This document shows, one piece after another, positions 1 through 27,736 of a stretch of DNA of 64,000 nucleotides. The position numbers were made by a program, and so were the translations under genes. The stretch's first letter is position 1. Each line of letters begins with the position of its first letter. This stretch comes from Acidobacteriota bacterium. GTDB lineage: Bacteria; Acidobacteriota; Holophagae; Acanthopleuribacterales; Acanthopleuribacteraceae. The DNA lies in assembly GCA_030066195.1 (NCBI GenBank), contig JASJCB010000049.1, positions 1 through 64,000 on the forward strand, given 5' to 3'. The notes under the pieces are model-generated. The model was not told where the DNA came from and did no database searches. It saw only the letters and a list, made by a program, of their open reading frames with translations.

Positions 1-3000
1 GTCCTGGGCATCGAAGACGATGTCGAGCTGGGTCAGGCCCGCCTCGATGGGCACGGTATAGCCCTGCTCGCCCGACGCTTCTTCGCTTAAGAGTGTTCCG
101 TTGATCGCAACGGAGCCGGTCACCGGCGTGCTGTCGTCGGTTGCCGACCAGGTGATCGTGATCTCCTGACCCATCGTCACCGGGTCGGGTGTCGCGCTCA
201 GGCTCATGACCGGCGGGGTCGTGTCGCGCATGATCGTGATGCTCGCCTCGCTCGGTTGCGCTCCGGTCAGTGTCGCGGTTGCGGTGATCGGGTTGTCGCC
301 CTCGATGTCGAGCGGCACGGTTGCTTCCCAATCGGTGCCGGTCAGTGTCGCGGGCAAACTGTTGACGGTGACCATCGCTGTCGGTTCTGAGACCGTACCG
401 GTGATGACCGCGCTCAGCTGGTCAGTTCGGGTTCCGTCCGCGGGTGCGGTGATCGCGATTGTCACGATCAACGGCTCGACCGGTACGGTCAGCGTGCGCT
501 GATCCGCGTTGCCCAAGTCGTCCTGGGCATCGAAGACGATGTCGAGCTGGGTCAGGCCCGCCTCGATGGGCACGGTATAGCCCTGCTCGCCCACGGCCTG
601 ATCGCTGAAGGGGATGCCGTTGACCGTCACGGAGCCGGTAACGGGTGTGCTGTCATCTGTTGCCGACCAGGTGATCGTCAGGGTCTCGCCCATGGTCACC
701 GGGCTCGGCAAGGCGTTCAGGCTCATCACCGGCGGTGTCTGGTCGCGGATGACCGTAATCGAATCGCCGGCGGTCGCGGCGGCCAGGTTTGCCTCGGCCG
801 TGATCGGATTGGCACCCTCGAGGGTAAGGGGGACACCAGCGCTCCAGTTGGCGCCGTCGCGGGTCGTGGTCAGACCCGCCACCGTTACCGTTGCAACGGG
901 CGGATCAACCGTTCCGCTCACCGTCACCGTGCCGGCGCTGGTGGTGAAGCCGGCCGTAGGGCTGGTGATCGCGACCACCAGGTTCGGTGGCAGGACCGTG
1001 ACGATTTCCTCTTTACCGGCGTTGTTGCCAAGCGTGTCGGTAGCGGTCAAGGTCAGGGTATAGGCGGTCAGGGCGGCATCATAGGGCACGGTCAGGCTGT
1101 CGCTGCCGGGGGTGGTCTCGGCGATCAGGACGCCGTCGCGGGTCATCGCGACCGAAGCAATCCCCGCATCGTCGACCGCGGCCCAGTCATAGGCCAGGGT
1201 CTCGCCCTGGCGTACGGATTCAGGTGCGTTCAGGGTCAGGGCCGGGCCGGTGATATCGCGAATGATCGTGATCGCCGCGGTGTCGGTCACACCGGCAAGT
1301 GTGGCCGTCGCGGTTATCGGGATCTCTCCATCAACTGTCAACGGCAGATCCACGGTCCAGGTGCTGCCGGTTTTGGCGGCGGGCCCGCCGTTGACCGTGA
1401 CTTCCGCGGCCTCGGGGGTGACCGTACCGCTGACGGTGACCGTGCCCCCGGCAGTGCGCAGCAGGTCCACGGGGCTGGTGATCGCGATCTGGACATCGGG
1501 AGGCAGGACCGACACGGTTTCGGTCCTGGTGTTGCTGTTGCCCAATGTATCGCCGGCGGTCAGCACCAGGCTGACCTCGGTCAGCGCGGCATCGTAGGGG
1601 ACAGTGAAGCTGTCGGAGCCGGGCGCGCCGGCAGCGACCTCGACACCGTTGCGGGTCAATGAGACCGAGGCAATGCCGCTCTCGTCATCAGCGGTCCAGG
1701 CATAATCGAGCACGTTGCCCTGAACCACGCTTGCGGCGACGGTGATCCCCAACACCGGCCCGGTGACATCGCGCACGATGGTCACCGCATCATCGGCTGT
1801 CTGGGCACCGAAGGTTGCCGTGGCAGTCAGCGTGATGGGACCTTCTACGGTCAGCGGAACCGTTGCGGTCCAGTCGGTATCTGTCGCTATCGCTGCCACG
1901 CCGTTGACGGTGACGGCAGCCGCCGGGTTGGTGACGGTACCGGTAACCGTGATCTCGGCTGCAGCGGTGCGGGAGCCCGTTGTCGGGCCGGCGATCGCGA
2001 CGGCAAGCGGAATCGGATCGACGATCACGGTCCGTGAATCGCTGTGCGTGTTGCCGGCGCGATCCTCGCCATAGGCCGCAAGCGCGATCTCGGTAAGACC
2101 GACGACGATTGGCACCGAGTCGTTGCGGGTGCCCGTGGCCTGATCGGAAACCGTCGTGCCGTCCTTGGTCACGTCGACCAGGGCCAGCTCGAGGTTATCG
2201 GTAACGGTCCATGACCAGCTCAGCGTCTGGCCCATGGTTACCCGTTCCGGTGCGGTCACGATCGCGACCGGCGGGGTGACATCGCGACTGATGGTGATCG
2301 CATCGCCGGCGGCATAGAGGCCCAATGAGGCCTCGGCCGTGAGCGCAATCGGGCCCTCGCCGGTCAACGCCAGGTCAACCGTCCAGGCATTGCCTGCCAC
2401 CGTTGCAGCGGAGCCGTTGACCAAAACCGTTGCCTGTGAGTGCGCCACGGTCCCGCTGACGGTGAGATTGTCCGCGGTCGTCCAACTGTCGGCGACGGGG
2501 TCGGTGATGCTGACGGAAAAGGCAATCGGGATGACCGTCACGGTGACATCTGCGCGTTCGGTATTTCCCAGACTGTCGGCGGCTTCGAGGCTGAAGGCAT
2601 AGCCGGCACGCGCCGGGTCGAAGGGGACGTCCAGCGTCTCGTTCCCAGCAGCTTCGCTCGAGACGATCGTGCCGTCCAGGATGAGCGTGGCCGTGACCGG
2701 GCCGTGCGGATCGCTTGCGGACCAGACGTAGCTGAGGATGGTACCCTGGTCGACCGGATTCGGGGTCGCGATCAGGTTCAGGGTCGGTCCGGTGGTGTCG
2801 CGCACAACCGTGGTCTGATCGCTGGCTTCCCTGCCCAGCAGAGTTGCGACCGCTTCGATGAGGTTGTCGCCCTCAGAGCCCAGCGTAACCTCGGCGCTGA
2901 AGCTGTTTCCCACGAGAGGCGTGTTGATGCCGTTGATGGTGAGTGTCGCCAGCGGTGTCGAGACGGACCCGCTCACCGTGACGGTTGTTTGTGCGGTCAG

Positions 3001-3055
3001 CAGACCGTCCACGGGGTCGGTGATCGACACGATCAGCTCGGGCACGGTGACGGTC
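1..3055 (-). repeat. Tandem Ig-like coding repeats, about 173 codons each
   Basis: The coding sequence contains at least six consecutive copies of a two-part Ig-like unit. Each opens with a motif like AITSPVDG, continues with VTVSGTV and a VTVNG hairpin, and ends with IIRDxTxPxL followed by a second domain. The last two copies in the window are closest: bases 1-73 and 520-592 are identical, an offset of 519 bases or exactly 173 codons. This indicates recent in-frame duplication or gene conversion. Units further right have diverged. Confidence 0.8.
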
Positions 3056-8373: not shown

Positions 8374-8422
8374 GATGCGCTCCATTCCATGTCGGAAACT
8401 GTCGATGCTCGAGGGCCCGCCT

Positions 8423-11400
8423 TCACGGACGGAAGGTGGGTGACCCGCCGTGGTAGAGGAGGTTGATCTGCCGGGGCGTGAGCACGACATCCCAGATGAC
8501 GTGCTCGTCCAGCCAACCCTGGTAATAGGTTTCGCTGCTGTGGTTGCGACCGTGATAGGCGTCGGCCGTCGTATCGGTGATGAGTGGGAAGGCGGTGATG
8601 CTCCACGACTGGGTGTCGATCAAGACGCCGTCGAGGTAGAGCGAGGCCGTGCCCTCGTCGAAGGTGAGGGCGATGTGATGCCAGGTACCCGGCAACAGCT
8701 CCGGTGTCTTTATCACCGATGGATTCGGAACATTAGCCGCGGGCTCATCCGGCGAGAAGCCCAAGGTGCGATCGGCATGAGTGGTCAGCGCATAGGTCCA
8801 GGAGTTGCTCCGCCCCGTGGCAAACAAGCCGCCGAGTTCGTGAAAGTCCTCGACCCTGGCCCAGATCGAGATACTGGTGGTTCCGGTCGCTTGGCCCTCG
8901 TCGCCGTTCAGATCGTAGAGGTACATGGGCTCGTGCTGGATTCGATTGTTGATACCGTCGAAGTAGTAGGATGTCGCTTCGATCCCGAGTTGCCCGCCCA
9001 GGCCGGACCAGATCCTGCCGTGCGCTTCTCTACCCGCGACGCTGTAGTGATCGACCAACTCGACCCAGCCGGTGCCGTTTTGCGTCGTGTGGAAGTCCCA
9101 ATGGGCGACGGGTTGCGGCAGCGGCAGCCCGACGTCGTCGTTACGCGTGTAGGGTGAAAGGGTAACCCCGTTGCTCTCCCTGGCAATCGCATCGACGGTC
9201 GTCAGGCGCAGGCTGTGAAGCGAGCCCGGGCTCAGGCTGTCGACCTGATAGGCGAGCGTGTCAGATGTGAGCGGGATCGGGTTGGGATCGCCGTCCACGT
9301 AGAGGTTATAGGTGACCGGCGCATCGCCGAACGACACGGGTGGCGCCTGCCAGCTGAGATCGAGGGTGGTGGCGGTCGCGGCCACGGACAGATCGCCGGC
9401 CTCTCGAGGCGGTACCGCGTAGTGGCGTGCCCCGAACGCGCCGCGGTAGTAGAGCGAGCGGATCTGCTGAGCGCTGAGTGCGGTATCCCAGATACCGAGC
9501 TCGTCGACGAAACCGTCATAGGCGGTCTGGCCGCGGACCGGGTTGGTACCGAGGATCAAGGCGCGATCATCGGCAAGGGTAAGGGTCGCCAAACCCCAAT
9601 CGTCGCTGCCCACGAGGAGACCGTTCAGGTAGAGCAAGACCTGGCCGGCCTCGACGGTGGCGGCCAGATGGTACCAGGTACCGGCCGCCAACGGGCCGAC
9701 CCGCAACCCGGCGTCCGGCGTTGCCGGGTAATCGCCCTGCAGGCTCAGCCAGCCGCCGGCGATATCGCTCTGGGTGGTCAACGAGAAGGTCTCGCCGGTG
9801 CCGCCGGCGGAGAGGTAACCGACGATGCCGCCGTCGGCGGTGAAGCTCGACACGTTAACCCAGGTCGCGAGTGTGAAGGATGTCGCGGTTGCATCCAGCT
9901 CTGATGTGGCGGACGCGGTCGCGCTGCCGCTCGCCCGGAACTCGAGGCTGCTGCCGACTATCCCGGCTCGGCCGGCCATCGCGTTCGTTGCGACGGCATG
10001 GTGCTGCCCGGTCGCATCGCCGAGCGTAGTCCCGGTGATCGAGACCGATTCCATGTCGTAGTGCAGGATCGGTTCGGGCACGGCCAGCGCGTTGATGGTT
10101 ACCGATTGCGTCTCGAGGGCCGAGGGCAAACCCAGGAAATCAATGGCAACGACCGCGAAGTGGTAGGTATTGCCGGCAATCAGGTCGCTGAGGGCGACGA
10201 CTTCATTGTCAACCGATTGGGTGGCAACGAGGGTCGCCTGGCTGACATCGGTGAAGGGTGTATCGGACAGGTAGACCCGGTAGCTGTCTACGGGCTTGAC
10301 GGCGCCGGCGCCGTAACCGCTCCAGTCGAGGATCACCGTCGTGCCGTTGTCAGCCGTGGTCGAAAATGATACGGCCGGGTTGTCGGGTACGAAGTCGTAG
10401 AAGCGGACGCCGTCGTCGCCGGCGACCCACAACAGCTCGCGGTTATAGCTGTCGAGCACGGTGTTCCAGATACCGATCTCGTCGATCCGCCCGACAAGGC
10501 CGGTATCGCCCGCGGTGTGACGGTTGCCGAAGCTGAGCGTGCCCTGTGCCGCCAAGGGCAGCGCGGTCACCGACCAGTCGGCCTCGTCGATCAGCACCCC
10601 GTCCTGGTAGAGGCCGGCGTGACCATGGTCGAATTGGGCGACGAGATTGGACCAGCGGCCTCGGGTTCTCGGAGCTTCCAAGAAGTCCGTGCCCGACTGG
10701 AAGCGGTACATGCCGCCCGAGATGTGTATCGAGAAGGTCTCGAGACCCGGCTCGCCGTAGCTGATAATACCGCCGTCGTCGGGCGTGTCGGGTCTGACCC
10801 AGACCGAGACGGTGAGTGTTTCCGGGATATCCAGCGCGGCCGAGTGGGCGAAGCTGACCTTGTCGCTGCCGTCGAAGATCAGGCCGCCCCGGAGAATCGA
10901 TCCGACCGGGGCAGCGCCTTCGAGCAGGCCGTGGTGCCTGCCCAGGAGATCGTAGGCATAGGTCTCGTCGACCGCTTCTGTATCGAGCGTCCAGTAGGAG
11001 ACCGCGTCCGGCATGTACCGCGTCTGCGGTGTGGGGGACTGTGAGCCGATCTGGCCCCGGTTGCCGAAGATGTCGACGGCGACCACGCCGTAGTAGAACG
11101 GCGGCCCGTTCAGGAACCCCACGGTGTCGAAACGGTCGTAGGCCCAGAGCTTGAAGCCTTTCAGTTTGTAGCCGACATTGTAATTGCCGGGAAACGGTTG
11201 ATCGTCGACGTAGACGGAATAGTGGTGGAGCCTGCGTCCCTGCGCCTTTTCGTCGTAGCCGCGCCAGTCGACGACATGGACGGTGCCATTGTCGAGCTCG
11301 GTCACGGTGAAGGGCACCGGGTCGAATTCCACGTAATAGCTGTCGACCATGATGCCGTACTCGCCCTGACCATGGAGAATGTCGACTTCGGTCTGCGTGA

Positions 11401-17400: not shown

Positions 17401-20400
17401 CGAGCAGGAAGGTGGTGTTGGTCTCGTTAAACAGCGGGGCCGCCTTGTCGAGCTCCAGGAAGGACAGGTCGCCTTGGTGACCGTCGTAGACGCCGTTGTC
17501 GATGTCCAGGTTGCCGCCGGTGAAGCGAATGACGGGATTACCGCCCAACTCGCCGGTGACGAGCTGTGGCGAGGAGATCGGCTGACCTTCGTGAGTGAAG
17601 ACGGTGGCATCGTTGGTGTTCACCGACTGGTCGCGCCAGGCGATGACGCCGGAGGCGTCGGTTTCGACACCGGCATCCGCCTTCAGCCACAGGCTCATAC
17701 CACGGGTCGGGATCTGGGGATTTGAAGCCAGCAGGGTCACCAGCCGATCGGCCTGGCTCCGGTCGAGCCGGCCTGCATGGATTTCCGGTTGAACGTCGCC
17801 GGCGTAGTCGCCGATCCACCGGGCTTCGGGGTGGTAGAGCCCGTACTTGTCGGCCAGATAGGCGCCGATGGTGGCGAGCTCGTCGGCATTCAAAGCGCGG
17901 TTGAACAGCAGGATCTCGGCGATCTCGCCTTCGAAGCCCTGAGCTTCGCTCCAGTTGCTGCGACCGACATAGTTGCTGGTGCGGATCGCGGTGGTGGGTA
18001 CCGGGTTGCGACCCGAGCCGATTTGCCGGCCGTCGCGGTAGAGCACGGTGCTCTGTCCGGTCTGAACGACTGAGGTCACACCGTATTCATAGAGCCGGTA
18101 GCCGTGGCGTCCCGGCGCGTTCTGGGGTGAGGAGCCGCCCTTGCCGACGCCGTAGATCAGGGTATCGGTCTGATCGCTCTGGCCCAGGTAGATGTTCTCG
18201 CGTTGCCGGCCGTTGCCGAAGTCGAAGAAGCGGGCATCGTTGCGCACTTCCGTAGGCAACGCGACCACAAAGGCGGTGACGCCGAAGGCAAAGTCGCGCA
18301 GGCCCGCTTCCAGGTTGAGCCAATCGGAGCCGTCGAAGCTGAGTGTGTCTCGGCCCGCCGGCGAGGCCGCGGCATGTGCAGGTCGCACCTCGATGGATGT
18401 CTGTCGGCCGTGATGGTCCAGACCGGACAGGTCGACCCAGGCGGCCACCTCGTTGTCCCGGGGTAGGTAGAGCGTCTCGCGCTCGGCGGTCAGCCACAGC
18501 ACGTTGTTGGGTACCGATCTGGGACTGAAATCCTCGGCCACGATGGTCACCGGTAACGAGGCGCCGGCGTTGAGCGCGATCGGCGTACGAGCAGAGCCAT
18601 GGTCGTGGGCTGTCAGCAATCCGTAGCTGCCCGGGTGCAGAACGGCCTGGAGGCGGCCCTCGCCGTCGGAGCGGCCCAGCACCCAACCGTCGGCCGTTAC
18701 CAGGGCGTCGGCCAGCACCAGGCCGCCGGTGTCCTGGATCTGGATTTCCACCAGGGCCACATCGGCCGGTTGCGGACCGACAAGAACAGCGTTGGTAATT
18801 TCATTGCGGTTGACCAACTCCACCTGGTTGAGCCATTGCACACCCAAGCGGCTGGTGACGCGGATGTCATAGAGTCCCTCTTCCAACTGCAGTTCGATGG
18901 GCGCGGTCAACGGGAAAGGGAATTCTCGATCGGCCACGTGGACCAGTCCGGCCAGCCCGTCGAAGGCTTCGTCCATGGTGATGCTGAGCGTGCCCTGGAA
19001 GAATGGAATCAAAGGCATCTCGATCACAAGGCCGCCGTCGACGATCGTGACCGCACGGGTTTCATCGATGCGGCCGTTGTCGGGTGTATAACCCTCGACG
19101 CGAAGCGTGAAATCGAGGCCGGCCTGGAAGCGCTCGCTGAGGTATTCGCCGCCGGCATCGGTCTGCCCGACGAGTTCGTCGTTCAGATAGACGTTCAGAT
19201 TCGCAACCGGAATCCCGTTGTCGATAGTGTTGGTAACGCGGACCAGAATATCGCCGCTGCCGCTGTCGGTAAGTGTCAGCGTGGGTGCATCCGGGTCCGG
19301 CCTGAGGCGCTGACGGAGCTGGTAGATGCCCATGTCCGCGGTGATGTCCAACGTGTAGGTGCTGATGCGATCGACGACCGCTGAGCCCTCACTGTCGGTG
19401 AGGACGGTTGCGCTGGTGCTGTACTGGGCGAACGTGATCGGGATTCCCGCAATTCCCAGACCGGTCTCGTCCTCCAAGGTGACCGTGAACGTCATCGAAT
19501 CGCGCCAGGCGTATTGTGAGGAGAGGTGAATCCGTGCCGCGATCGGGCCGGCAAGGTTCACGGTGCTCTGGGCCTGGCGCCGGGCAACGGGATCCTCGTC
19601 ATAGACGCGGAAATCCCATTCGCCGAAGGAGAGATCCCTGATCACGAATTCCTCACCGGGCGGCGGGAACCAGGTCAGCTCGCCGTCGGGGCCGTAACCG
19701 CGGATCTCGAGGGCATCGGCCACATCGAGACCAGTGAAGATGACTTCGCCGCGCTCGGGAAGCTCGAGGATGACGGTTTCGCGCATGCCGATCTCGACGC
19801 CGTGCACATCGAAGAGCGAGAGGCGGACCTGGTTTTCACCGATGCGCCAGGGGGAGAGCGCAACGGCATAATCGACCCCCACGCCGTTGGTACCGTCGGG
19901 CAGGAGTGTCATATCGACGCGGCGACCGTTGATCTCCAGCCGAGAGGGACGACCCTCGCCCTCGTAGCGGTTGAGCCGATCGACATCGATCTCGAAGCCC
20001 GGGTCTTCGACCACGAAGCGCAGGCTGAAAGGTGTCGCCGTAATCGTCGTCGGACCCTCCAGACCGATCGCGTAGGGAGAATCCCATTGGAAGCTGTAGG
20101 TTTCCACCGCTTCGGCCTTGTGCAGACCGATCACCTCGACGGTGACCTCGTTGAGCCCGAACTCCCACGGAGAATCGAAGACAGGCACCGCGTATTCCCA
20201 ACGATCGTTGGAGGCGTTATAGGTCATCGACAGGTTGCCCAGCAACACCTCGGAGGCTTCGCGGTCCAGCGCCACGCTGATGGTGGGCAGGTTGTCGTTC
20301 CAACTCACCGCGAAGTCGGTGATCGCCGGCGGGGTCTGGATCAGGGTGAAGTCGTCGAATTCCTGGTAGCCCGTGGTCAGGGTGCGCACGTAGGAGGTAT

Positions 20401-23400
20401 GGGGTCTTCTGGGGTAGGTCGGTTTCATGATGCGGAATTCGAGCGGAACGCTCGCGGGCAGATAGCTCCACTGCATGAAGGGGTTGGCATAGCGGCTGCC
20501 CAGGTAGGCCCCGGTCTGGTTGTTGTAGACGTAGATGTGCCTGGTGACAAGGGCGCCGCTGTCGGCATCGGTCAACAGCACCTTGACGGTTCCGGTCGGC
20601 TGGGTGAGCGCGAGATCGAGGGTGATCTGCTGATCGAGGTCGGTGACATTGACGACCTGGCTGACCGAATACGGCGAGCCGTGGGGCTGCAGGCGCAGCT
20701 CCCATTCGCCATAGGGCAGGGAGATCGCGGCGAACCCGTCGGTGAAGTTGCGCGACCAGCTGACTCTGCCGTCGCCGGTGCGAATGCGCCTGAGCGAGAA
20801 GTGAGAGATCGGCAGTTGGTCCGAGTCACGGAAGGTAATGTCGGCGCGAACCCAGAACGGCAGGGTGACGTCGACCTCGTTGAAGACACCGTGCTCGATC
20901 CTGATCCCGGGGTTCCACTGGCTGCGGGGGATGGTCGGTGTCGTCATGCGCCAATCGCCCTGGGGAATCGCGTCCCAGCGGGCCTCGAGCACACCGGCGT
21001 TGTCGATGATCTCGGCGGTAAAGGTCTTGAGCGGGGTTCGGACCTGGAAGACCTGGCCTTCTGAGAGCGGCAGGCCGCCCTCGTACTGACCGGTCAAGAT
21101 CAGCGGGCCGCCCCCCGGGACCTGGATTTCGCGCATGACCGTATCGCCTCCGTAAAGCTGGAACGAGCCGGTCTTGCGCACGCCGCGCGCCGGGTCGAGG
21201 TAGGTGTAGCTGTATTTGCCCTCGACCAGGTAACGGAAATTGACGATGTTGTTGCCGTCGAGCACCTGGGTGAAGGTGGTGCCGTGGCCGTATAGCGAGA
21301 TCAGGCCCTTGCTGTAGGTATCGCCGAGCTGGGTGACCTCGAAGGAGGCGTCGCCGATCCGTTGGTGCATGGCGATGGTGAGGTCGGTGACCAGGCGCTC
21401 GTCGATGATGACCGAGCCCGATCCGTAGTACTGACCGTCATCACTGACGGCAACCAGGTCGAGGAAGGCGCCGATGGGCAGGTTCTTGAAGCGGACCTTG
21501 CCGAAGTTGTCGGTGAAGGCGGCGTTCCAACGGCCGGCACGCACGCGCACGCCGCGGAAAGGCTCGAGCGTGTTCTGGTCGAGCACGGTGACCTCGAGGA
21601 TGCGCGGTTTCTGGACTTCGATCAGCACCTCGTCGGAGTGGTCGATCTTCACCGTTCGCCGGATCGAGAAGCTGTTGTGGTCGAGCGTCCGCTCGAAGCC
21701 GGCGTTCAGGGTGAGCTCACCCTCCATGAAACGATAGGGCAGCGGATCGCCGGCGGGGTAGATCACCCTGCCGGTTCGGACCGCGACACCACCCGGTGCT
21801 TCCCAGCGCCAGGTGACGGTGATGCGCTCGTCGACCGGACCGCCGGTATCGGCCCAGTTGAAGCCGATCGGCGGTGAATAGGGAATCACGGTCAGGTGGC
21901 CGGTTGCCTCGCTGATCTGGTTGTCCAGGATCTCGGTGTTGACCAGGGCCTGCTGGTTGTCGTCCAGCGAGGTAATCAGGAACGTCAGCTGACCCGGCGA
22001 CATCCACGGTGTGGTCCAGGTGCCCTCGTCGGGCGAGCCGATGCCGGCGTCGATCTTGCCGCGTACCACCGGGCACCCGTTGCGGAAGCCGATCACGTGG
22101 GCGCCGCGGGCAAAGCTGCCGTCATCGAGCTTGGCGGTGAGGGTGACCTTGCCGACCGGTTTGAGGAAGATCTCGAGGTCGTTGACCTCGGGCACGCGGA
22201 AACTGACGTTCTTGCGGCGGTTGGTGAAGGGATCGTAGATCATCAAGTTGTAGCTGCCCCGGGTGAGGGTTGGGAAGGAGAAACTGCCGTCTTCTTCGAC
22301 GACGGAGAGCAGCTCCTGGTTGCTGATGCCGCTGATGGAACTGTTGGAGAACCGTAACGTGCTGACCCCGCGTTTGAGGATCAGTTGAGCGCCGGCGACC
22401 GGCGTGTGGTCGGTGTTCAGCACCAGGCCGGTGAAGTCCTCGCCGGGCAGCAGGTTGAGGGTGGCGCGCTCGACATCGTCGACAAGGCTGCCCTTCCAGA
22501 CATCAGAGTAGCCGTTGGTGATCCCGAAGGCGAGCACCGACCAGTCGCCGTGAGGCATCTCGTCGAAGGTCATCACGCCGTCCGGCCCGTCGGGATCGAG
22601 CACGCGCTCGGTCCACAGCGTGGTGCCCTTGAAGATTTGGATCAGGGTCTTGCCGTCGAGCGGCGTGCCGGTCTCGTCGTTGACGACCACCTCGAGCGAG
22701 CCGAGCGGCTTGATGATGATGTCGATCGAAGCACCGACCGTGTGTGGGAAGATCTCGGTGTTCTCGCTGTAGCCTTGGGGAATCTGGGGCCCGTAATAGG
22801 TGACAGACAGCGGCACACCGGTCTGGACCATCAGTGTGGGGGTGAAGTCGTTTTCGGTGAGCGTGATCGAGAGGTTGGTGTTGTCCTCGTCGAACATGTC
22901 GTTGATGATACGGTGTTGGGTCAGCTCGATACTACCGGTCTTCATACGGTTGCCGTAGGTGTCCCAGACCCTGACCCTGGTTTCCGCGGTAGTGGTCAAC
23001 TGTGCGTGCACGAAAGCCTTGGGCGTCTTGCGGTCCCAGTTCACGTAACGGGTGCCGTAATTGCCGGTGACCGGATCATAGGCCTTGATGAAGAAGGTGT
23101 AGCCCTCCTCGATTTCGCCGGGCAGGTTGACCTGGCTCAGCGTGAAGGTCCCGTTCATGGAAGTGGCGTGGGTATCACCGATGGGGATCAGGAAGGGAAT
23201 ATCCGTGCCCGGCGGGACATACCACAGGAACAGCTCGAAGAGCACCGCGTGATCGACCGGGTTCTGGAAGGCGTCGAAGATCACGCCCTCGATCTCGACG
23301 ATGCGGTCGGGGATGGTATTGTCGACGATCGGTTGCAGCAGCAGGTCTTGCTCGAAGACCTCGGTATCGCCCTCGAGCAGGGTGAAGCTGCCGTACGAGG

Positions 23401-26400
23401 TCTTGTATCGGTTGACCATCTCGACCGGCGGCAGCATGGTCACCTTGGTCAGACCGGGACTCAAGTTGGCAAAAACAACCTTGCCGTCGGCATCGGTCGA
23501 GCCGGCGTACTTGATCCCCGAGGCGTCCTCGACCTCGATCCAGACGTCCTCGGTTTTGATCAGGGTGTCCGCGGTGAAAACCGTCAGCAGTGCTTCGCGC
23601 ACGGGTGGGAATGCAACCTCGACGGTCTGCTCGAACTGGCCCACCGAGCGGATGAAGATGTGCTTTTTGACGCGGAAGTCAGTGGGGTGCTGTACCTCGA
23701 TATCGATGCGGCTCTCTTCGGGGGGGACGATGCCGGTCCATTCGAAGCGGGCCTCACCATTGCCGGCGGAGAAGGCCGACTGGGTGAGGTTGGGGGACCC
23801 GTGGGGGGCGGCGCGGACCCAGACATCGGTAATCGGTTGCCCGTCGGTGTCGACGGCGCGCACGGTCAAGCCGAACGGCGGCTCGTAGTTGTCGAAGTGA
23901 ACGGTCGTCGAGAGCTGGACCGGGGCCTCGCTCGAGAGCGTGTAGAATTCCCGGTATTCGCCGCCGCCCGGTCTCGGGACGATGACCTTGCCCCTGCCGA
24001 CAACCACCTCCTTGAACAGCGTGGTTCCATTTTCGTCGGTCTCCTGCCGGGTTGCGGTCAGGCCATCGACCAGGATGACGGGTAGATTGGCCTTGGGCTG
24101 GCCCTGGGTGTCGGTGACCAGGACGGTGACCTCGCCGCGCTCGCGGGGGCGGTAGAGGAAGGTGCCCAGGTCGAACGGTGGGTCGGAGACGCTCTGGCGA
24201 CGCACGACCTCGACCGTTTTCCAGGAGAAGCCGACGCCGAGTGCGCGCGCGTAATCGAAACGTACCGTGCCCTCGGGCAGGTCCATGGTCACGCGCCCGT
24301 CGTCGATCTCGGAGAGATTGGCCGCCGCCAGCAATTTGCCCTGCTGACCGCCGAACTCGGCGCCGTAGTGGTAGGCCAACAGGAAACCCCGCGTGGCCGG
24401 GATCTCGTTGCCGAATTCGTCGAGCTCGAGGATCTGCGCGGTGACCTGACCGGGCAGGGTCGCCGGATCGAGCGTGACGACCGTGCCGTCGGTTTCCGGG
24501 CTGAGCTGGATGCTGCGGGCATCGAAGCCGCCGATCGCCTTGGCCAGGATGCTGACCGGGCCGAGCCTAATCCCCGAGACCGTGATCGTCTCGCCGGGCG
24601 CCGTCACGCGGTCGAAGAAGAATTCGTCCTGGTCGACGATCTGGATCTGGACCACGTCGGTTGGGCCGGGTATAGCGTTGTCGGGCAGGGCCGGAATATG
24701 GACTTTCAACGAACCCTGGGCCGGGAAGATGAAATCGCGCACCACGCGCTGTTTGTCATAGCTGCCGTAGATGCGACGGACGACGCGACGGTCCCCGTGG
24801 GCGACCGTCCATTTCAGGTCGGGCCGCTCGTCGACGCAGTGGGGGCCGCCCTTGGAGTCCTCGGGACAGATCTCGAGGATATTGTGGGAATGGAGCCGGT
24901 ACAGCGACCAGTTCTCCATCAGGTAGCGACCGTCTTCTCCGGTCAGCGTCTGAAACTCGAAGGGGTAGCTGATCACGCCGGGATTGAGCTCTTGTTCCTC
25001 GCGGCCGTACTTTTCGATGATCGCGTTGACCTGGCGGGCAAACTCGCCGAAGCCCAACGCCTCGAGCTGCTCCTTACCCGAGAAGGTGTAGTCTTTCTGG
25101 TAGTTGAAGCGCTTGGTCAGGTACATCAGCCCGATCTCCGCGCCCGCCAACGGCTCGCCGTCTTCGCCGAAGACGCGGCCCTCCACCGTGACCGAGTTCC
25201 AGTAATCCGACATATGGATCACCTGTTCGATCGGCTCCACGGGTCGGCCCGTCTCGGTGATGATGCCCGGTAGCGCGGTCAGGTCGCGGTCCACCAGGCC
25301 CAGCGGGTTTCGGGCCCAGATCTGCACGATCTGGTCGCGGACCTTCTCGGCGCGGGTCACCCAGTTGTTGGGAATGTCCAGGTTGCGCACGAAGTCGTCG
25401 TCGACGACCACCGGCTCGCTGAAATACAACAACAGTTGGCGGCCGAAGCGGTCGATACGCCCGGAGGCCACGGTTTCATAACCCATCTGGCGGACCGCGG
25501 TCAACTGGGGCGTCGTCTCCGGAAAGGGGGTCCAGGTCGGCGTGACGCGCGCGCCCTCGTGCACGAATTCCATCTGGCTGCCGTTCCAGACCAGCAGCAA
25601 CCGGCCCTCCGGCAAACCTGCAAGCGTCCACTGCCGCCAGCGGATGTCGGGATAGAAGAAGCCCTCCACCAAACCCGAGGCCTGGACCGTGAATTCGAGC
25701 GAATCGAAGTCCGTATCAAGCCGGTAACCGGTCCAGAACGCGCCGCTGTCCGGGTCGCCCAGAATCAGCCGTCCACGAGCACCTTCGAGAGTTTGGTTAC
25801 GCACCAGCAGCACACCACGGCCGATGAGCAGGTCATCAGTGGGTATATCTGACAAGTCGCCGGCAAAGGAGGCCCACCAATCGCTCAGCTCGCGGAACTT
25901 GCTGTCCTGATCCAGAAAGGCCAGAAAATCTGGGGACTGGGACAGCGTCGCCAAAAAGAAATCACGGGCCAGCGTACGGGCCTGTTCCTCGATTGTCCCC
26001 ATGCGCGGTTTCAGGACCGCGTAGGTGAGGTCCTGGATCCAGTTCTTGACCTCCTCGTGGGAGACGAAGCCGAGATCACCCTCACGCTCGCCGGGGGGAA
26101 CCTGGGCCAGGCTGATCGCACGACCCGCGACCACCCGGGTCAAGGTGTAGACATCGTTCTGGACATTCGGGTTGTCGGGGAACATGATCTGATTGATGCC
26201 GTCCTGCAAGGCTTTCGGCATCAACAGGCCCATCGTCGAAACCGGCAGGCCGTGCTCGCCTACCGCCACCTTGACGGAATAAGTCAGCGACTCGAAGTCG
26301 CCGTCGCTACGGACATCGTGGACGATCACCCGGCCCGTGGTCATCGCGATCAGGTCCATGCGGAAGATCGCCTGATCACCCTTGTTCTCGAGGTGGACCG

Positions 26401-27736
26401 GCCCGCTGACCGGTACGCCGTTGACCAACGCCGAGGTGCCGTTCAGAACCGCGCCCTGGATCGTGTCCTCGTCAAAGGCAAAGCTCAAATCGTAGACCGG
26501 CACATCCGAGAGGTTGTCGAAGATGGCGTCGATCTGGAAGTTGTCGTCCTGGCGGACCGCCGAAGGGAAGTCCATGTGAAGGCTCATCTTGGGAGGACGC
26601 ACGTAGATGAAGCCGCGCGCCTCGCCGGTGATCGGGTAGCTGTTGCCGTCGTCGGCCTTCAAAATGCCGCGGATATCGAAGCTCAGCGCGTGCTCGCCGG
26701 GTCGCTTGCCTTCCAGGATCCACGAGGTAAAGCCTTTTTCCTGCGGTTCGAGCGCATCTTCGTCATCCGGCGTGCCCTGAATGCCGTCGGGGCCCGGACC
26801 GAACACACGAGTGACTGCTGATTGTGTGCGGTCCTCCAACCGTGCCAACTCCAGCGCGCCGGCCGGGAAGCCGATCGTCGCCCGCAGGTCTTCCACGCGG
26901 TAGGGGGTACCGCCCGGCGCCACGTTCAGAACCGCCAGCGTCGGTTTGAAGAAACTGTTGAGATAGCCCACCTGGGCCGACCAGATCACGACCGCATCGA
27001 TCTGGGGTAGCTTCAACATCGGGCGCGGCACGTTCGGCTTTTCACTGACCGGAGGAATGCCGGTCGTTCCAAAGGTGGGAAAGCGCGCATCGACGCCCTT
27101 GAACGAGAAGCTGACCGGCGAATAGGATAGCTTTTCACCGCCGGTGTGGATCGGCGTGTAGCGGCCGGTGTTCTCGTCCTTGATCAAGACGATGCGGGCG
27201 TCGAGGAACTCATTGGTTTCTTTGATCTCGAGTTCGACCTCGACACTGACGGCCGTGTAATTGTCATCGCCCAACACGATGCCCAGCGCACGCATCTCCT
27301 CATAGCTCAGCCGCTTGATCTCGACCTGGGGCACGATCACATCCTCGATCACGGTGACCGCCACCACCTTGTCGAACAGGCGCATGACCGCACCTTCGCT
27401 ATCGACCAGGCGCCAACCGTTGAGCGAACCGTTGCCGCTCTGATCACCGGGGTTGATGCGTATGGTGCCTTCCCAATCGAGGGAGGCCTGATAGGTGGTC
27501 GCGCCGCCGCCCGGCGCGTTGTACTCCAGCATCAGCTTCCAGCCGGGGGGCAGCTCGGGCCGCTCCTCGTTACCGAAATCACCGCTGAAATCGAAGCCGA
27601 TGGTAAAGGGAACCCCTTTGACCGCAACAGCTTGAGCCGGCGCCACATCGAGTCGTAGGCCCACCAGGCGCCAGTCTTCGCCGGCCTCCAGAGGCCAGGC
27701 TGTAATCATTAGCAAAAGCGCAGTTATCCTGAACAC
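8423..27736 (-). CDS. Giant exported multidomain protein, 6437 residues
   Basis: One uninterrupted reading frame of 19.3 kb. I prefer the GTG at 27736: it follows a GGGGGG tract by eight bases and gives a clean signal peptide (MFRITALLLMITAW, cleavage near PLEAG). An in-frame GTG at 27784 would add 16 residues. Residues 20 to about 840 are unassigned beta-rich sequence. From about 845 to 2900 there are many carboxypeptidase-regulatory/Ig-like modules (e.g. VTVEGRVFGEDGEPLAGA). Two LamG-like domains lie near 3075-3300 and 3342-3602, a chitobiase-type domain (IHYTLDGDEPT) near 3604-3685, and a glycine-rich stretch near 3765-3915. Five more LamG domains with fibronectin-like linkers fill 4920 to the C-terminus (openings such as YWPLD and YWTLD). 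No enzyme motif or anchoring signal is evident. Export by Sec and surface binding are inferred. It is the first gene of the pair with the next giant gene. Confidence 0.88.
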   Translation of the reverse strand: MFRITALLLMITAWPLEAGEDWRLVGLRLDVAPAQAVAVKGVPFTIGFDFSGDFGNEERPELPPGWKLMLEYNAPGGGATTYQASLDWEGTIRINPGDQSGNGSLNGWRLVDSEGAVMRLFDKVVAVTVIEDVIVPQVEIKRLSYEEMRALGIVLGDDNYTAVSVEVELEIKETNEFLDARIVLIKDENTGRYTPIHTGGEKLSYSPVSFSFKGVDARFPTFGTTGIPPVSEKPNVPRPMLKLPQIDAVVIWSAQVGYLNSFFKPTLAVLNVAPGGTPYRVEDLRATIGFPAGALELARLEDRTQSAVTRVFGPGPDGIQGTPDDEDALEPQEKGFTSWILEGKRPGEHALSFDIRGILKADDGNSYPITGEARGFIYVRPPKMSLHMDFPSAVRQDDNFQIDAIFDNLSDVPVYDLSFAFDEDTIQGAVLNGTSALVNGVPVSGPVHLENKGDQAIFRMDLIAMTTGRVIVHDVRSDGDFESLTYSVKVAVGEHGLPVSTMGLLMPKALQDGINQIMFPDNPNVQNDVYTLTRVVAGRAISLAQVPPGEREGDLGFVSHEEVKNWIQDLTYAVLKPRMGTIEEQARTLARDFFLATLSQSPDFLAFLDQDSKFRELSDWWASFAGDLSDIPTDDLLIGRGVLLVRNQTLEGARGRLILGDPDSGAFWTGYRLDTDFDSLEFTVQASGLVEGFFYPDIRWRQWTLAGLPEGRLLLVWNGSQMEFVHEGARVTPTWTPFPETTPQLTAVRQMGYETVASGRIDRFGRQLLLYFSEPVVVDDDFVRNLDIPNNWVTRAEKVRDQIVQIWARNPLGLVDRDLTALPGIITETGRPVEPIEQVIHMSDYWNSVTVEGRVFGEDGEPLAGAEIGLMYLTKRFNYQKDYTFSGKEQLEALGFGEFARQVNAIIEKYGREEQELNPGVISYPFEFQTLTGEDGRYLMENWSLYRLHSHNILEICPEDSKGGPHCVDERPDLKWTVAHGDRRVVRRIYGSYDKQRVVRDFIFPAQGSLKVHIPALPDNAIPGPTDVVQIQIVDQDEFFFDRVTAPGETITVSGIRLGPVSILAKAIGGFDARSIQLSPETDGTVVTLDPATLPGQVTAQILELDEFGNEIPATRGFLLAYHYGAEFGGQQGKLLAAANLSEIDDGRVTMDLPEGTVRFDYARALGVGFSWKTVEVVRRQSVSDPPFDLGTFLYRPRERGEVTVLVTDTQGQPKANLPVILVDGLTATRQETDENGTTLFKEVVVGRGKVIVPRPGGGEYREFYTLSSEAPVQLSTTVHFDNYEPPFGLTVRAVDTDGQPITDVWVRAAPHGSPNLTQSAFSAGNGEARFEWTGIVPPEESRIDIEVQHPTDFRVKKHIFIRSVGQFEQTVEVAFPPVREALLTVFTADTLIKTEDVWIEVEDASGIKYAGSTDADGKVVFANLSPGLTKVTMLPPVEMVNRYKTSYGSFTLLEGDTEVFEQDLLLQPIVDNTIPDRIVEIEGVIFDAFQNPVDHAVLFELFLWYVPPGTDIPFLIPIGDTHATSMNGTFTLSQVNLPGEIEEGYTFFIKAYDPVTGNYGTRYVNWDRKTPKAFVHAQLTTTAETRVRVWDTYGNRMKTGSIELTQHRIINDMFDEDNTNLSITLTENDFTPTLMVQTGVPLSVTYYGPQIPQGYSENTEIFPHTVGASIDIIIKPLGSLEVVVNDETGTPLDGKTLIQIFKGTTLWTERVLDPDGPDGVMTFDEMPHGDWSVLAFGITNGYSDVWKGSLVDDVERATLNLLPGEDFTGLVLNTDHTPVAGAQLILKRGVSTLRFSNSSISGISNQELLSVVEEDGSFSFPTLTRGSYNLMIYDPFTNRRKNVSFRVPEVNDLEIFLKPVGKVTLTAKLDDGSFARGAHVIGFRNGCPVVRGKIDAGIGSPDEGTWTTPWMSPGQLTFLITSLDDNQQALVNTEILDNQISEATGHLTVIPYSPPIGFNWADTGGPVDERITVTWRWEAPGGVAVRTGRVIYPAGDPLPYRFMEGELTLNAGFERTLDHNSFSIRRTVKIDHSDEVLIEVQKPRILEVTVLDQNTLEPFRGVRVRAGRWNAAFTDNFGKVRFKNLPIGAFLDLVAVSDDGQYYGSGSVIIDERLVTDLTIAMHQRIGDASFEVTQLGDTYSKGLISLYGHGTTFTQVLDGNNIVNFRYLVEGKYSYTYLDPARGVRKTGSFQLYGGDTVMREIQVPGGGPLILTGQYEGGLPLSEGQVFQVRTPLKTFTAEIIDNAGVLEARWDAIPQGDWRMTTPTIPRSQWNPGIRIEHGVFNEVDVTLPFWVRADITFRDSDQLPISHFSLRRIRTGDGRVSWSRNFTDGFAAISLPYGEWELRLQPHGSPYSVSQVVNVTDLDQQITLDLALTQPTGTVKVLLTDADSGALVTRHIYVYNNQTGAYLGSRYANPFMQWSYLPASVPLEFRIMKPTYPRRPHTSYVRTLTTGYQEFDDFTLIQTPPAITDFAVSWNDNLPTISVALDREASEVLLGNLSMTYNASNDRWEYAVPVFDSPWEFGLNEVTVEVIGLHKAEAVETYSFQWDSPYAIGLEGPTTITATPFSLRFVVEDPGFEIDVDRLNRYEGEGRPSRLEINGRRVDMTLLPDGTNGVGVDYAVALSPWRIGENQVRLSLFDVHGVEIGMRETVILELPERGEVIFTGLDVADALEIRGYGPDGELTWFPPPGEEFVIRDLSFGEWDFRVYDEDPVARRQAQSTVNLAGPIAARIHLSSQYAWRDSMTFTVTLEDETGLGIAGIPITFAQYSTSATVLTDSEGSAVVDRISTYTLDITADMGIYQLRQRLRPDPDAPTLTLTDSGSGDILVRVTNTIDNGIPVANLNVYLNDELVGQTDAGGEYLSERFQAGLDFTLRVEGYTPDNGRIDETRAVTIVDGGLVIEMPLIPFFQGTLSITMDEAFDGLAGLVHVADREFPFPLTAPIELQLEEGLYDIRVTSRLGVQWLNQVELVNRNEITNAVLVGPQPADVALVEIQIQDTGGLVLADALVTADGWVLGRSDGEGRLQAVLHPGSYGLLTAHDHGSARTPIALNAGASLPVTIVAEDFSPRSVPNNVLWLTAERETLYLPRDNEVAAWVDLSGLDHHGRQTSIEVRPAHAAASPAGRDTLSFDGSDWLNLEAGLRDFAFGVTAFVVALPTEVRNDARFFDFGNGRQRENIYLGQSDQTDTLIYGVGKGGSSPQNAPGRHGYRLYEYGVTSVVQTGQSTVLYRDGRQIGSGRNPVPTTAIRTSNYVGRSNWSEAQGFEGEIAEILLFNRALNADELATIGAYLADKYGLYHPEARWIGDYAGDVQPEIHAGRLDRSQADRLVTLLASNPQIPTRGMSLWLKADAGVETDASGVIAWRDQSVNTNDATVFTHEGQPISSPQLVTGELGGNPVIRFTGGNLDIDNGVYDGHQGDLSFLELDKAAPLFNETNTTFLLVKTTDAPVTVLSVYDMDYRNPLAYRVDEALELQATVITHDYSSYYRRNIDKSTRLSSYAVGNSWALLALSNDNNKRLTARVLGNQTADEVVNLPDDSHFGMAVGHRWGPGRRYYMDRSTAEELVGDIAEILVYDRLLDESEILEVEAYMAQKYGLVMETPQPVFFPDGGVYTNVQQVTVTGVAGGTIHYTLDGDEPTMGDPVIADGNSLTLTTDTTLRARVFRDGFRPSPVTSATYVIGVPQGVAVIDNTKTIWTVGTTEQNFENRDILISGANVTVVGPHTFKSLRLINGAVLTHRSLETPGVTLTVTGDVTIDPDSAIDAGGLGYGSADGPGEPAGTAYRRGAGGGYGGAGGFGTDTEGGPAYGADEALTPVAFGSGGGRTSQLDGGAGGGRIRLDIGGDLILEGAIRADGREGEADDEKKGGGGSGGSVHISAATITGSGTISADGGLGYRSLTAPLDVGNGGGAGGRIALEYDTGLSDFPPASVHAYNGFGGAAEAGTVYVNGQPVENAQLTLRVIDKDEITLAGMWVRILHVDGRELIGQTDGFGLVTFTGLAVGEEWACYISDDAVTWDPQVVLQLTGVNNFEVLRAGDTIEARLRMITGLHYWPLDFYVNGFLVAENVQPNGYHFTVPVRRAQINRIEVFFHGWQTGRVASIRPYVSKDAEDNDIIVVDDYDNAAGWEAVVMVAGAADGGELNYGHRTGLRFTYIENATGNVLPGYSQKYNGERNWPTTTYVYDPYEGLLFRPVYLPGNGEVTLRYRYYDNISNSYTEPSVLMLEDELSSPGQYDIHLPYPVMRGEVLLENGANALSFAVSLLIDDADLTKLEEDPDGPDYRMVKDHPNDLRFEIDGYLEGTVRLLQGVFDNTMLVTDQDLVFESFGVLHVGAIDFSGEPGDSYYKPDQNGGWIWIARELGEHYSPADFPIWSEGPWDGFFENIPTDFAEPRTYIMPLGYWSVGGAKVAARSGVFTETGQEITVSWEPDEAPVQTRQINLEIYGPRNDLGQAYRVFAINETNYAHIHYPPGVEDGWRSDEMWLPLGRTWFFLTYGWGDEGNGGGGGEGEGKTAETAQKAFGSGNTWVIEREITEDDWLDGYITLDFWDGAVEELFWGLVQDFSIMPGLIHANWLGFGEGSGGGVHKQDPVARTVPPNGNVMAFGQPLLKQGNFFYSPIGWFGHVDTATGSDGEIAWRHKIIDLAGLIDDTEISVPLRYAVNAPDDSGIAPLFNEEPVTLTTDEEECEYHFFFNLPADASDLTISFTGGSGYAPFYLTYDVPADDGNWEYASLPSGPGDQVLYVPYYATEEGRWYLMIGCYPGFTNRTLEVSWSEPGGGGGEEGKRRKTSLVTGMNEVQSATGFLFGVLAGDDLSEVMPTFSEPRNDVFITFDPADLKEYEDSYYSIDFTYTLPANESGTWSFIFPMMMAPHFSDDDIPYFQQDYDDWKNGFDPAFDPFFNALPQSWRDEALNWSAGGGGNGAFPDPLSYWPLDLLGTTETHSYDIMKRHHGENTAVLLGTEGRIGEALGFNGTSSVDFQPSEDLDSEENVSVAAWVSVSQWDYGAALVTYGDEETTTFSLELGGEGFVFRSDNFEIESEPPALNQWVHVAAVYGEGTATLYLDGSPAASTTITEGGTLLPLGAPSRLSFGSGPGAIAQFRGDLDEVALWDVALSDGQVNQVFEQGNNDVPVGTYFNPPPAVATKVFTANYQNIAVIDWRDYDATNQAVVEYLLYESQEPMAFEDEENLSSALSPDVKLVSFSDLDVEYDHYYAVVAVDVFGNHSTFGSFFADEQTVALPYPVTYLTFDDEDTSSTRTYDILKANPGDLQGATLSQVAVAGESLSFDGSASVELPFTEIPLVAEPPGEEEIPPHMPSMTGISLWVTAEALTEGATILSHGHTGRETFTIDIASGGLRFKANWPDAEFTVGTDPIQTDRWYHLVAVFDNGTASIYLDGVLANSTNWGIVTLPFEAGATLAIGRDVTDRGTRFTGHLDELVFFGNTLTQTEVDILHGQGEYGIMVDSYYVEFDPVPFTVTELDNGTVHVVDWRGYDEKAQGRRLHHYSVYVDDQPFPGNYNVGYKLKGFKLWAYDRFDTVGFLNGPPFYYGVVAVDIFGNRGQIGSQSPTPQTRYMPDAVSYWTLDTEAVDETYAYDLLGRHHGLLEGAAPVGSILRGGLIFDGSDKVSFAHSAALDIPETLTVSVWVRPDTPDDGGIISYGEPGLETFSIHISGGMYRFQSGTDFLEAPRTRGRWSNLVAQFDHGHAGLYQDGVLIDEADWSVTALPLAAQGTLSFGNRHTAGDTGLVGRIDEIGIWNTVLDSYNRELLWVAGDDGVRFYDFVPDNPAVSFSTTADNGTTVILDWSGYGAGAVKPVDSYRVYLSDTPFTDVSQATLVATQSVDNEVVALSDLIAGNTYHFAVVAIDFLGLPSALETQSVTINALAVPEPILHYDMESVSITGTTLGDATGQHHAVATNAMAGRAGIVGSSLEFRASGSATASATSELDATATSFTLATWVNVSSFTADGGIVGYLSAGGTGETFSLTTQSDIAGGWLSLQGDYPATPDAGLRVGPLAAGTWYHLAATVEAGQVLLYLNGLLVGSDDWGLATLTLADDRALILGTNPVRGQTAYDGFVDELGIWDTALSAQQIRSLYYRGAFGARHYAVPPREAGDLSVAATATTLDLSWQAPPVSFGDAPVTYNLYVDGDPNPIPLTSDTLAYQVDSLSPGSLHSLRLTTVDAIARESNGVTLSPYTRNDDVGLPLPQPVAHWDFHTTQNGTGWVELVDHYSVAGREAHGRIWSGLGGQLGIEATSYYFDGINNRIQHEPMYLYDLNGDEGQATGTTSISIWARVEDFHELGGLFATGRSNSWTYALTTHADRTLGFSPDEPAANVPNPSVIKTPELLPGTWHHIALTFDEGTASLYLDGVLIDTQSWSITAFPLITDTTADAYHGRNHSSETYYQGWLDEHVIWDVVLTPRQINLLYHGGSPTFRP

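What the first reader, a model, noticed from the sequence alone, without database searches (positions are those of the whole stretch)
1..27736. Two giant exported proteins in one operon, at least 27.7 kb of coding DNA
Proteins of 6437 and more than 2790 residues, both with signal peptides, are separated by 49 bases. Both combine LamG with Ig/FN3/PKD modules, but the first is dominated by carboxypeptidase-regulatory modules and the second by PKD and Ig. No catalytic domain is visible in the sequenced parts. Together they probably form or decorate a surface structure.
Basis: partly seen in the sequence, partly recalled or inferred. Interest (0 to 1): 0.5.

Follow-up and report, generated by a model that had tools for sequence, protein, structure and literature searches.

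The report
Giant paired proteins, likely toxin-delivery operon
Two enormous bacterial proteins encoded side by side belong to a family found in many Acidobacteriota, in which a giant rod-like protein often sits next to a giant protein that, in its nearest complete relatives, ends in what looks like a toxin against rival cells.

Summary
In detail: P1 (8423-27736, -) has 6437 residues, P2 (1-8373, -) at least 2791, gap 49 nt. Position 1 is the end of contig C375, and no continuation of P2 was found in the assembly.

Relatives supply context. The genome holds a sister operon on contigs C236 and C146, whose ends share 128 identical bases. Its first protein is a paralogue of P1; its second (about 8,600-8,800 residues by summing the parts) carries an Ig array like P2's and ends in RHS repeats, a HINT domain and a ~130-residue tip. 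In OFTM365 the complete homologue (8,300 residues) ends RHS-HINT-AHH-like nuclease and the next gene is Imm11.

P1's N-terminal ~500 residues define a module without database match, found in 45 of 396 Acidobacteriota genomes. Of 40 such loci with readable downstream DNA, 19 carry an RHS giant, 10 an Ig-array giant without RHS seen, 11 neither.

Best reading: a two-giant RHS polymorphic-toxin operon. The toxin end of P2 is inferred; P1's role is unproven.

The parts
8423..27736 (-). P1 (giant1), 6437 residues, GTG start, GGGGGG run upstream of the start
26105..27652 (-). N-terminal 516-residue module shared by 24 aligned homologues; model: three Ig-like beta-sandwich regions plus a helical end. 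The window member has no Pfam (E <= 0.1) or NCBIfam (E <= 0.01) match; the profile has no PDB sequence match; some other members match CARDB or similar Ig-like families weakly
12992..27736 (-). P1 core shared with the orthologues in G003 and G005, which stop here (4,741 and 4,726 residues)
   Evidence: boundary approximate
22172..22432 (-). best CarboxypepD_reg-like module of P1
8480..12769 (-). C-terminal extension of P1 with five LamG domains and fn3-type domains; beyond the end of the G003/G005 orthologues
8374..8422 (-). 49-nt gap between P1 stop and P2 ATG
1..8373 (-). P2 (giant2), at least 2791 residues, cut by the contig end
3364..8097 (-). P2 section with LamG (5), PKD (4) and a few Ig modules; P2 ORF residues 74-920 are 50% identical to residues 936-1789 and 39% to residues 42-841 of the complete giant2 of G005
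1..3027 (-). P2 Glucodextran_B-type Ig array, still running at the contig end; in most RHS giants examined such an array lies before the RHS part

Best explanation
The two genes are one member of a family of two-giant operons of Acidobacteriota. Giant1 (P1) is an exported rod of many beta-sandwich domains (roughly 60, estimated from length) with a conserved N-terminal module. Giant2 (P2) is an exported polymorphic toxin: LamG/PKD and an Ig array form a long stalk, followed, in the nearest relatives, by an RHS cocoon, a HINT self-cleaving domain and a small exchangeable toxin tip, with a candidate immunity gene behind it. Likely working: both are exported; the LamG/PKD/Ig parts hold and extend the toxin at the cell surface, giant1 serving as dedicated scaffold or target-binding fibre; on contact with a neighbour the tip is cut loose and enters it, while siblings are protected by the immunity protein. 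Shown here: the two frames, their homology to more complete operons, the domain order in relatives, different tips on related bodies, Imm11 next to the AHH-like tip. Inferred: that the window's P2 has the same tail, export and surface display, the role of giant1, cleavage and delivery.
For: P1 ORF residues 9-4680 align with the C236 giant1 at 41.5%, and both go on with LamG domains; P1 also aligns with giant1 of G003:C10 and G005:C7 over nearly their whole length. Giant2 of these three operons carries RHS in 3 of 3 (by Pfam; G003:C10 by 71% alignment to G005 and a local profile). C236 and C146 share an exact 128-bp end overlap in frame, and the repeats on both sides are 87% alike against 66-68% for the window's array. 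C146 and G005 bodies align at 37-38% for about 5,100 residues and part in the last 107-130 residues, the pattern of exchangeable tips. Tips recognised in other operons: Tox-REase-7 behind PT-HINT, EndoU and DUF900 hydrolase, AHH-like just below cut-off, WHH/colicin-DNase. An Imm11 gene starts within 4 nt of the G005 giant2 stop; PMC3482391 lists Imm11 with Tox-AHH (passages). A 148-residue ORF starts 8 nt behind the C146 giant2. Linkage: of 40 readable giant1 loci 19 have an RHS giant downstream and 10 an Ig-array giant without RHS seen (5 of these 10 cut by a contig end). The local RHS profile hit 0 of 41 shuffled copies and 0 of 10 giant1 proteins.
Against: No RHS, HINT or toxin lies in the window. 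The giant2 body was found once in the genome, on C146, which belongs to the sister operon, so P2's tail is not in the assembly as far as searched; P2 could end differently or be truncated. Eleven of 40 giant1 loci have no giant2, among them C168 in this genome, and five complete Ig-array giants (G009, G023, G151, G365, G401:C25) show no RHS. Ig hits alone are not specific: the local Ig profile also hits 4 of 10 giant1 proteins once or twice. HINT is seen in only 3 of the 11 complete RHS giant2 proteins scanned (C178, G005:C7, C146, the last below cut-off). Six of these 11 tips show no known toxin: five at E <= 1 apart from hits near E 0.1 (C146, G006:C1, G006:C6, G002 twice) and G416 at E <= 0.01. 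C178 has no gene of 250 or more residues within 1.5 kb behind its giant2, and smaller ones were not looked for. No secretion route across the outer membrane was identified. No background rate for the linkage was computed.
Confidence: 0.68

Rival explanations
1. A pure adhesion/matrix pair: P1 and P2 are giant surface fibres that bind carbohydrate or protein on a host, prey or biofilm, and P2 ends without a toxin.
For: Only LamG, PKD, Ig, fn3 and carboxypeptidase-regulatory modules are visible. Giant1 genes without any giant2 exist (11 of 40), among them tandem giant1 pairs in G004:C15 and G006:C59, and five complete Ig-array giants without RHS exist.
Against: All three nearest operons carry RHS in giant2.
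Confidence: 0.23
2. Giant1 is not a partner of the toxin; the two are only neighbours, giant1 being an unrelated envelope protein whose locus is a favoured place for RHS genes.
For: Giant1 occurs without giant2 in 11 of 40 loci; another gene can sit between them (OmpA in G009; frames of 277-378 residues in G387 and G401; larger frames in G377 and G152).
Against: Adjacency recurs in several families of the phylum (19 of 40 with RHS, 29 of 40 with RHS or Ig-array giant), hard to explain by chance, though no controlled background rate was computed.
Confidence: 0.25
3. Assembly artefact or decayed gene.
For: P2 is cut by a repeat-rich contig end.
Against: Open frames of similar size and order in other genomes; changes between P1 and its paralogue fall on codon position 3 > 1 > 2 (0.524, 0.438, 0.362 over 4509 codons) and neither frame has an internal stop.
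Confidence: 0.03

Closest known systems
RHS polymorphic toxin systems (Zhang et al. 2012, PMC3482391; passages seen)
   Same: Stalk repeats, RHS, HINT, variable C-terminal tip, immunity gene behind; that paper also says LamG domains usually lie at the N-terminus of complete toxins and probably anchor them to the producing cell.
   Different: The complete RHS giant2 proteins read here have about 4,300-8,800 residues and lie next to a second giant protein; no such partner in the passages seen.
Bacterial Teneurin-like proteins, TLPs (PMC13018210; passages seen), including one of Acanthopleuribacter pedis
   Same: YD-shell with toxin tip and immunity gene, Ig-like and TTR domains before the shell; HINT-type tip predicted for A. 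pedis.
   Different: In six genomes searched, frames over the TEN_YD-shell cut-off have 2,172-2,201 residues; the only giant2 row, G005:C7, has 19.8 bits against 50. No giant1 in the passages seen.
TANFOR polymorphic toxins of Bacteroidetes (PMC7073777; passages seen)
   Same: Large exported proteins with a phylum-specific N-terminal domain, often fn3 domains, and exchangeable tips.
   Different: Proposed T9SS substrates; no giant partner gene in the passages seen.
Giant1-5 surface proteins of Apilactobacillus kunkeei (PMC12863079; start of abstract seen in a listing)
   Same: Consecutive genes for extracellular proteins of 3,000-8,000 residues.
   Different: Lactic acid bacterium; no toxin part in what I saw.

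Membership tests
RHS polymorphic toxin system | RHS/YD repeats in the second protein | not testable with these tools
   Window: contig ends inside the Ig array, no RHS hit in P2. Nearest operons: 3 of 3.
RHS polymorphic toxin system | HINT or other pre-toxin domain before the tip | not testable with these tools
   Window: cut. C146 PT-HINT and Hint_2 below cut-off, G005 PT-HINT 28.9 bits (cut-off 27.7), C178 PT-HINT 78.5 bits; not seen in the other 8 complete RHS giant2 proteins scanned.
RHS polymorphic toxin system | variable C-terminal toxin on a conserved body | not testable with these tools
   Window: cut. C146 versus G005: bodies 37-38% identical, last 107-130 residues not aligned; five toxin/hydrolase families among 11 complete tips.
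RHS polymorphic toxin system | immunity gene next to the toxin | not testable with these tools
   Window: cut. G005: Imm11, E 5.7e-9; C146: 148-residue ORF of no known family.
RHS polymorphic toxin system | export signal at the N-terminus | tested here: inconclusive
   Hydrophobic signal-like N-termini by eye; no predictor run.
Bacterial Teneurin-like protein | TEN_YD-shell over the family cut-off in giant2 | tested here: not met
   G005:C7 giant2 19.8 bits against 50; no row for C146 or C178. The window's own tail is missing.
Type VI Rhs effector | N-terminal PAAR domain | tested here: not met
   No PAAR in P2 at E <= 0.05.
Two-partner secretion / CDI | TPS (haemagglutination activity) domain at the N-terminus | tested here: not met
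   None in P1 or P2 at E <= 0.05.
Tc (ABC) toxin complex | SpvB/TcB-type part before the RHS | tested here: inconclusive
   None in the C178 giant2 at E <= 0.01, but the window's tail is not available.

The most novel reading that the evidence does not exclude
A two-component weapon of the Acidobacteriota: a giant beta-rod protein with a new N-terminal module works as obligate scaffold or contact fibre for a giant RHS toxin, the two together exceeding 13,000 residues per operon (4,726 + 8,300 in G005), among the largest polymorphic-toxin systems.
Probability: 0.35. Interest if true: 0.75.

Novelty: new variant of a known kind. Interest (0 to 1): 0.55.

Why it matters
It gives a testable function to giant reading frames that would otherwise be left as 'LamG/Ig domain protein', offers a module (alignment A2) by which they can be found in about one in nine sampled Acidobacteriota genomes, and suggests how such bacteria might hold RHS toxins at their surface. 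If giant1 is a dedicated partner, it would be a new kind of component of polymorphic toxin systems.

Tried and rejected
Search for P2's tail in the genome: 600-bp end query, RHS_repeat and Glucodextran_B profiles, C146 body and G005 tail as queries (the RHS search scored 150 of 313 candidates). Contigs C400, C371, C118, C174, C158, C397, C324, C3, C179, C270 were read in part: the only frame open at its 5' end at a contig end, with RHS, is on C397, and that end shares 27 bases with the end of C158, where another RHS frame runs off, so I do not take it for P2's tail. Idea that C146 is P2's tail: rejected. Idea that giant1 is an enzyme or protease trap: the N-terminal model resembles generic Ig-like sandwiches (transglutaminase C-terminal barrels, VIA Z about 10 at rmsd about 10; alpha-2-macroglobulin, TRAPPII and others by Foldseek at low TM); no function follows. 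The core model has Foldseek matches to alpha-2-macroglobulin-type proteins, pilins and other sandwich rods at low TM. BFVD gave low-TM hits, many to Ig-like or phage proteins. PDB sequence searches: 0 hits for the module profile and the C146 tip. A single-seed RHS profile missed several RHS giants and was replaced by a ten-seed one, whose seeds come from ten of the proteins then counted; the three proteins that rest on it alone were not seeds. Papers: searches listed no description of a giant1/giant2 pair that I noticed in titles and abstract starts; the library lacks most subscription journals and bioRxiv. PMC8841776 (Sulfidibacter) has no word beginning rhs, toxin or giant in its main text.

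Full report
Observation. The two frames are real and as described. P1: GTG 27736 to stop 8423, 6437 residues. P2: ATG 8373, at least 2791 residues. The gap is 49 nt. The window is contig C375:1-64000 of an 11.6-Mb genome in 407 contigs, and C375 is 69,507 bp, so position 1 is a contig end. By Pfam P1 holds CarboxypepD_reg (78.6 bits summed, no single stretch significant), LamG, Big_1, MG4, CHB_HEX_C_1, fn3; P2 holds LamG, PKD, Glucodextran_B-type Ig, He_PIG. Local profiles count LamG 7 and 5, PKD 0 and 4, Ig 0 and 15 in P1 and P2. Residue numbers below count from the first start of each frame (27784 for P1, 8490 for P2).

Organism. Contigs of two relatives have the same lengths as G003:C10 and G005:C7: HKST-UBA04 (Acidobacteria, MAG; 342,951 bp) and OFTM365 (Holophagae, MAG; 152,333 bp). 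G002, a single contig of 11,786,365 bp in the same family, matches in size Sulfidibacter corallicola M133 (11.79 Mb; PMC8841776, passages); this name is an inference. So the window probably comes from an Acanthopleuribacteraceae-like member of the Acidobacteriota.

Sister operon. P1's N-terminal 837 residues find C236 at 52% and, weakly, C168 and C178 in the same genome. The C236 giant1 (frame of 6,849) aligns with P1 residues 9-4680 at 41.5%; both continue with LamG domains. Behind it starts a second giant that runs off C236. The last 128 bases of C236 equal the first 128 of C146, in frame, and the flanking repeats are 87% alike, against 66-68% for the window's array. C146 continues the frame for 6,749 residues: Ig array, CarbopepD_reg_2 and DUF6531 (both below cut-off), RHS, Rhs_assc_core and HINT (just below cut-off), and a tip of about 130 residues without Pfam match. 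The contigs were compared, not joined; the sum of the parts is about 8,600-8,800 residues, depending on the start codon. A 148-residue ORF starts 8 nt behind the stop.

Orthologues. G005:C7 has giant1 4,726 and giant2 8,300 residues, complete; G003:C10 has 4,741 and more than 6,669. P1 aligns with these giant1 proteins over nearly their length at 35-36%; P2 residues 74-920 align with giant2 of G005 residues 936-1789 at 50%; P2's Ig array aligns with C236/C146 at 37-48% over about 800-1,050 columns. The G005 giant2 ends RHS, PT-HINT, AHH-like (E 2.6e-4 for the tip alone, 21.4 bits against a cut-off of 22.3), and the next gene, whose first start lies within the giant2 stop region, is Imm11. PMC3482391 lists Imm11 with Tox-AHH (passage). 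C146 and G005 bodies are 37-38% alike, their tips do not align. The body was found, in 41 genomes searched, at this strength only in C146, G003:C10 and G005:C7.

Wider family. An alignment of 24 N-terminal modules (A2) finds matches in 45 of 396 sampled Acidobacteriota genomes, 44 of the 354 good ones, 38 of 210 genera; apart from three fragments (277, 155 and 100 residues) the frames have 1,396-7,669 residues. I read the DNA behind giant1 at 40 loci: 23 of the 29 rows (four run off their contig inside giant1, two were not fetched) and 17 of the 20 fetched (three end inside giant1). Rows that appear only and were not fetched are not counted. Result (only same-strand frames of at least 180-250 residues, within at most 20 kb, were looked at): 19 of 40 have an RHS giant (12 in the window's family, 7 elsewhere). 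In most it is the next gene; in G401:C45 and G387 one small gene lies between, in G002:151k a 1,899-residue Ig frame, in G377 an 856-residue frame with masked bases, in G152 three frames. Ten of 40 have an Ig-array giant without RHS seen; five of these, the window included, are cut by contig ends, five are complete (G009, G023, G151, G365, G401:C25). Eleven of 40 have neither. RHS was found by Pfam in 16 of the 19; the other three (G003:C10, G005:C22, G002:151k) rest on the local profile, which hit 0 of 41 shuffled copies and 0 of 10 giant1 proteins. No background rate was computed.

Tips. Of 11 complete RHS giant2 proteins scanned, five have a recognisable tip: Tox-REase-7 (C178), EndoU (G002), DUF900 hydrolase (G003:C61; the Tle3 hit is below cut-off), AHH-like (G005, just below cut-off), WHH/colicin-DNase (G377). 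The other six are unknown (C146, G006:C1, G006:C6, two of G002, G416). HINT is seen in 3 of the 11. One Holophagaceae giant2 without RHS (G009) ends in VanY and has an OmpA gene before it.

Structure. The N-terminal module of P1 models as three Ig-like regions (mean pLDDT 77); matches are generic. P1 residues 1250-2050 model as beta strands without helices of 4 or more residues (mean pLDDT 68, pTM 0.34). Together with length this suggests a long rod; it is an inference.

Verdict. The window holds one of two closely related giant operons of this genome. I read it as a two-giant RHS polymorphic-toxin operon whose toxin end is missing from the assembly. The kind is known; the size, the paired giant1 with its module, and its spread through the phylum were not described in anything the named searches showed me.

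Noticed in passing
window:29367-29528 (-): A short peptide of about 53 residues with a charged leader and a Cys-containing end, looks like a RiPP precursor by eye; no Pfam hit at E <= 0.01.
   Followed up: partly
L006:5804-6529 and 6595-9774 (contig C146): Two related short Cys-rich precursor-like ORFs followed by a LanM-type synthetase (DUF4135 + LANC_like), close behind the sister toxin operon.
   Followed up: partly
G004:C15:48625-95288 and G006:C59 around 383201-383904: Tandem giant1 genes (7,680 and 7,662 residues in G004; gap 702 nt in G006) without an RHS giant behind them in the stretch read.
   Followed up: partly
G000:C168:986-5448: Giant1 (7,359 residues) is followed by three smaller secreted-looking proteins, the 744-residue one with FG-GAP repeats.
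   Followed up: no
G000:C158:1 and C397:63881: Two contig ends with RHS frames that share 27 bases, so one RHS gene is probably split between them.
   Followed up: partly
G006:C56:24305-24676: Weak match of the giant2 body inside a frame of 8,757 residues, another giant not examined.
   Followed up: no
G006:C18, G002:C1:10862822-10865356, G004:C69: Frames of 2,172-2,201 residues over the TEN_YD-shell cut-off: probably Teneurin-like proteins as published, separate from the giants.
   Followed up: partly
window:30700-34899 (+): Hybrid two-component regulator (Reg_prop, HisKA, response regulator, AraC-type HTH) divergent from the giant operon across a 3-kb AT-richer gap.
   Followed up: no
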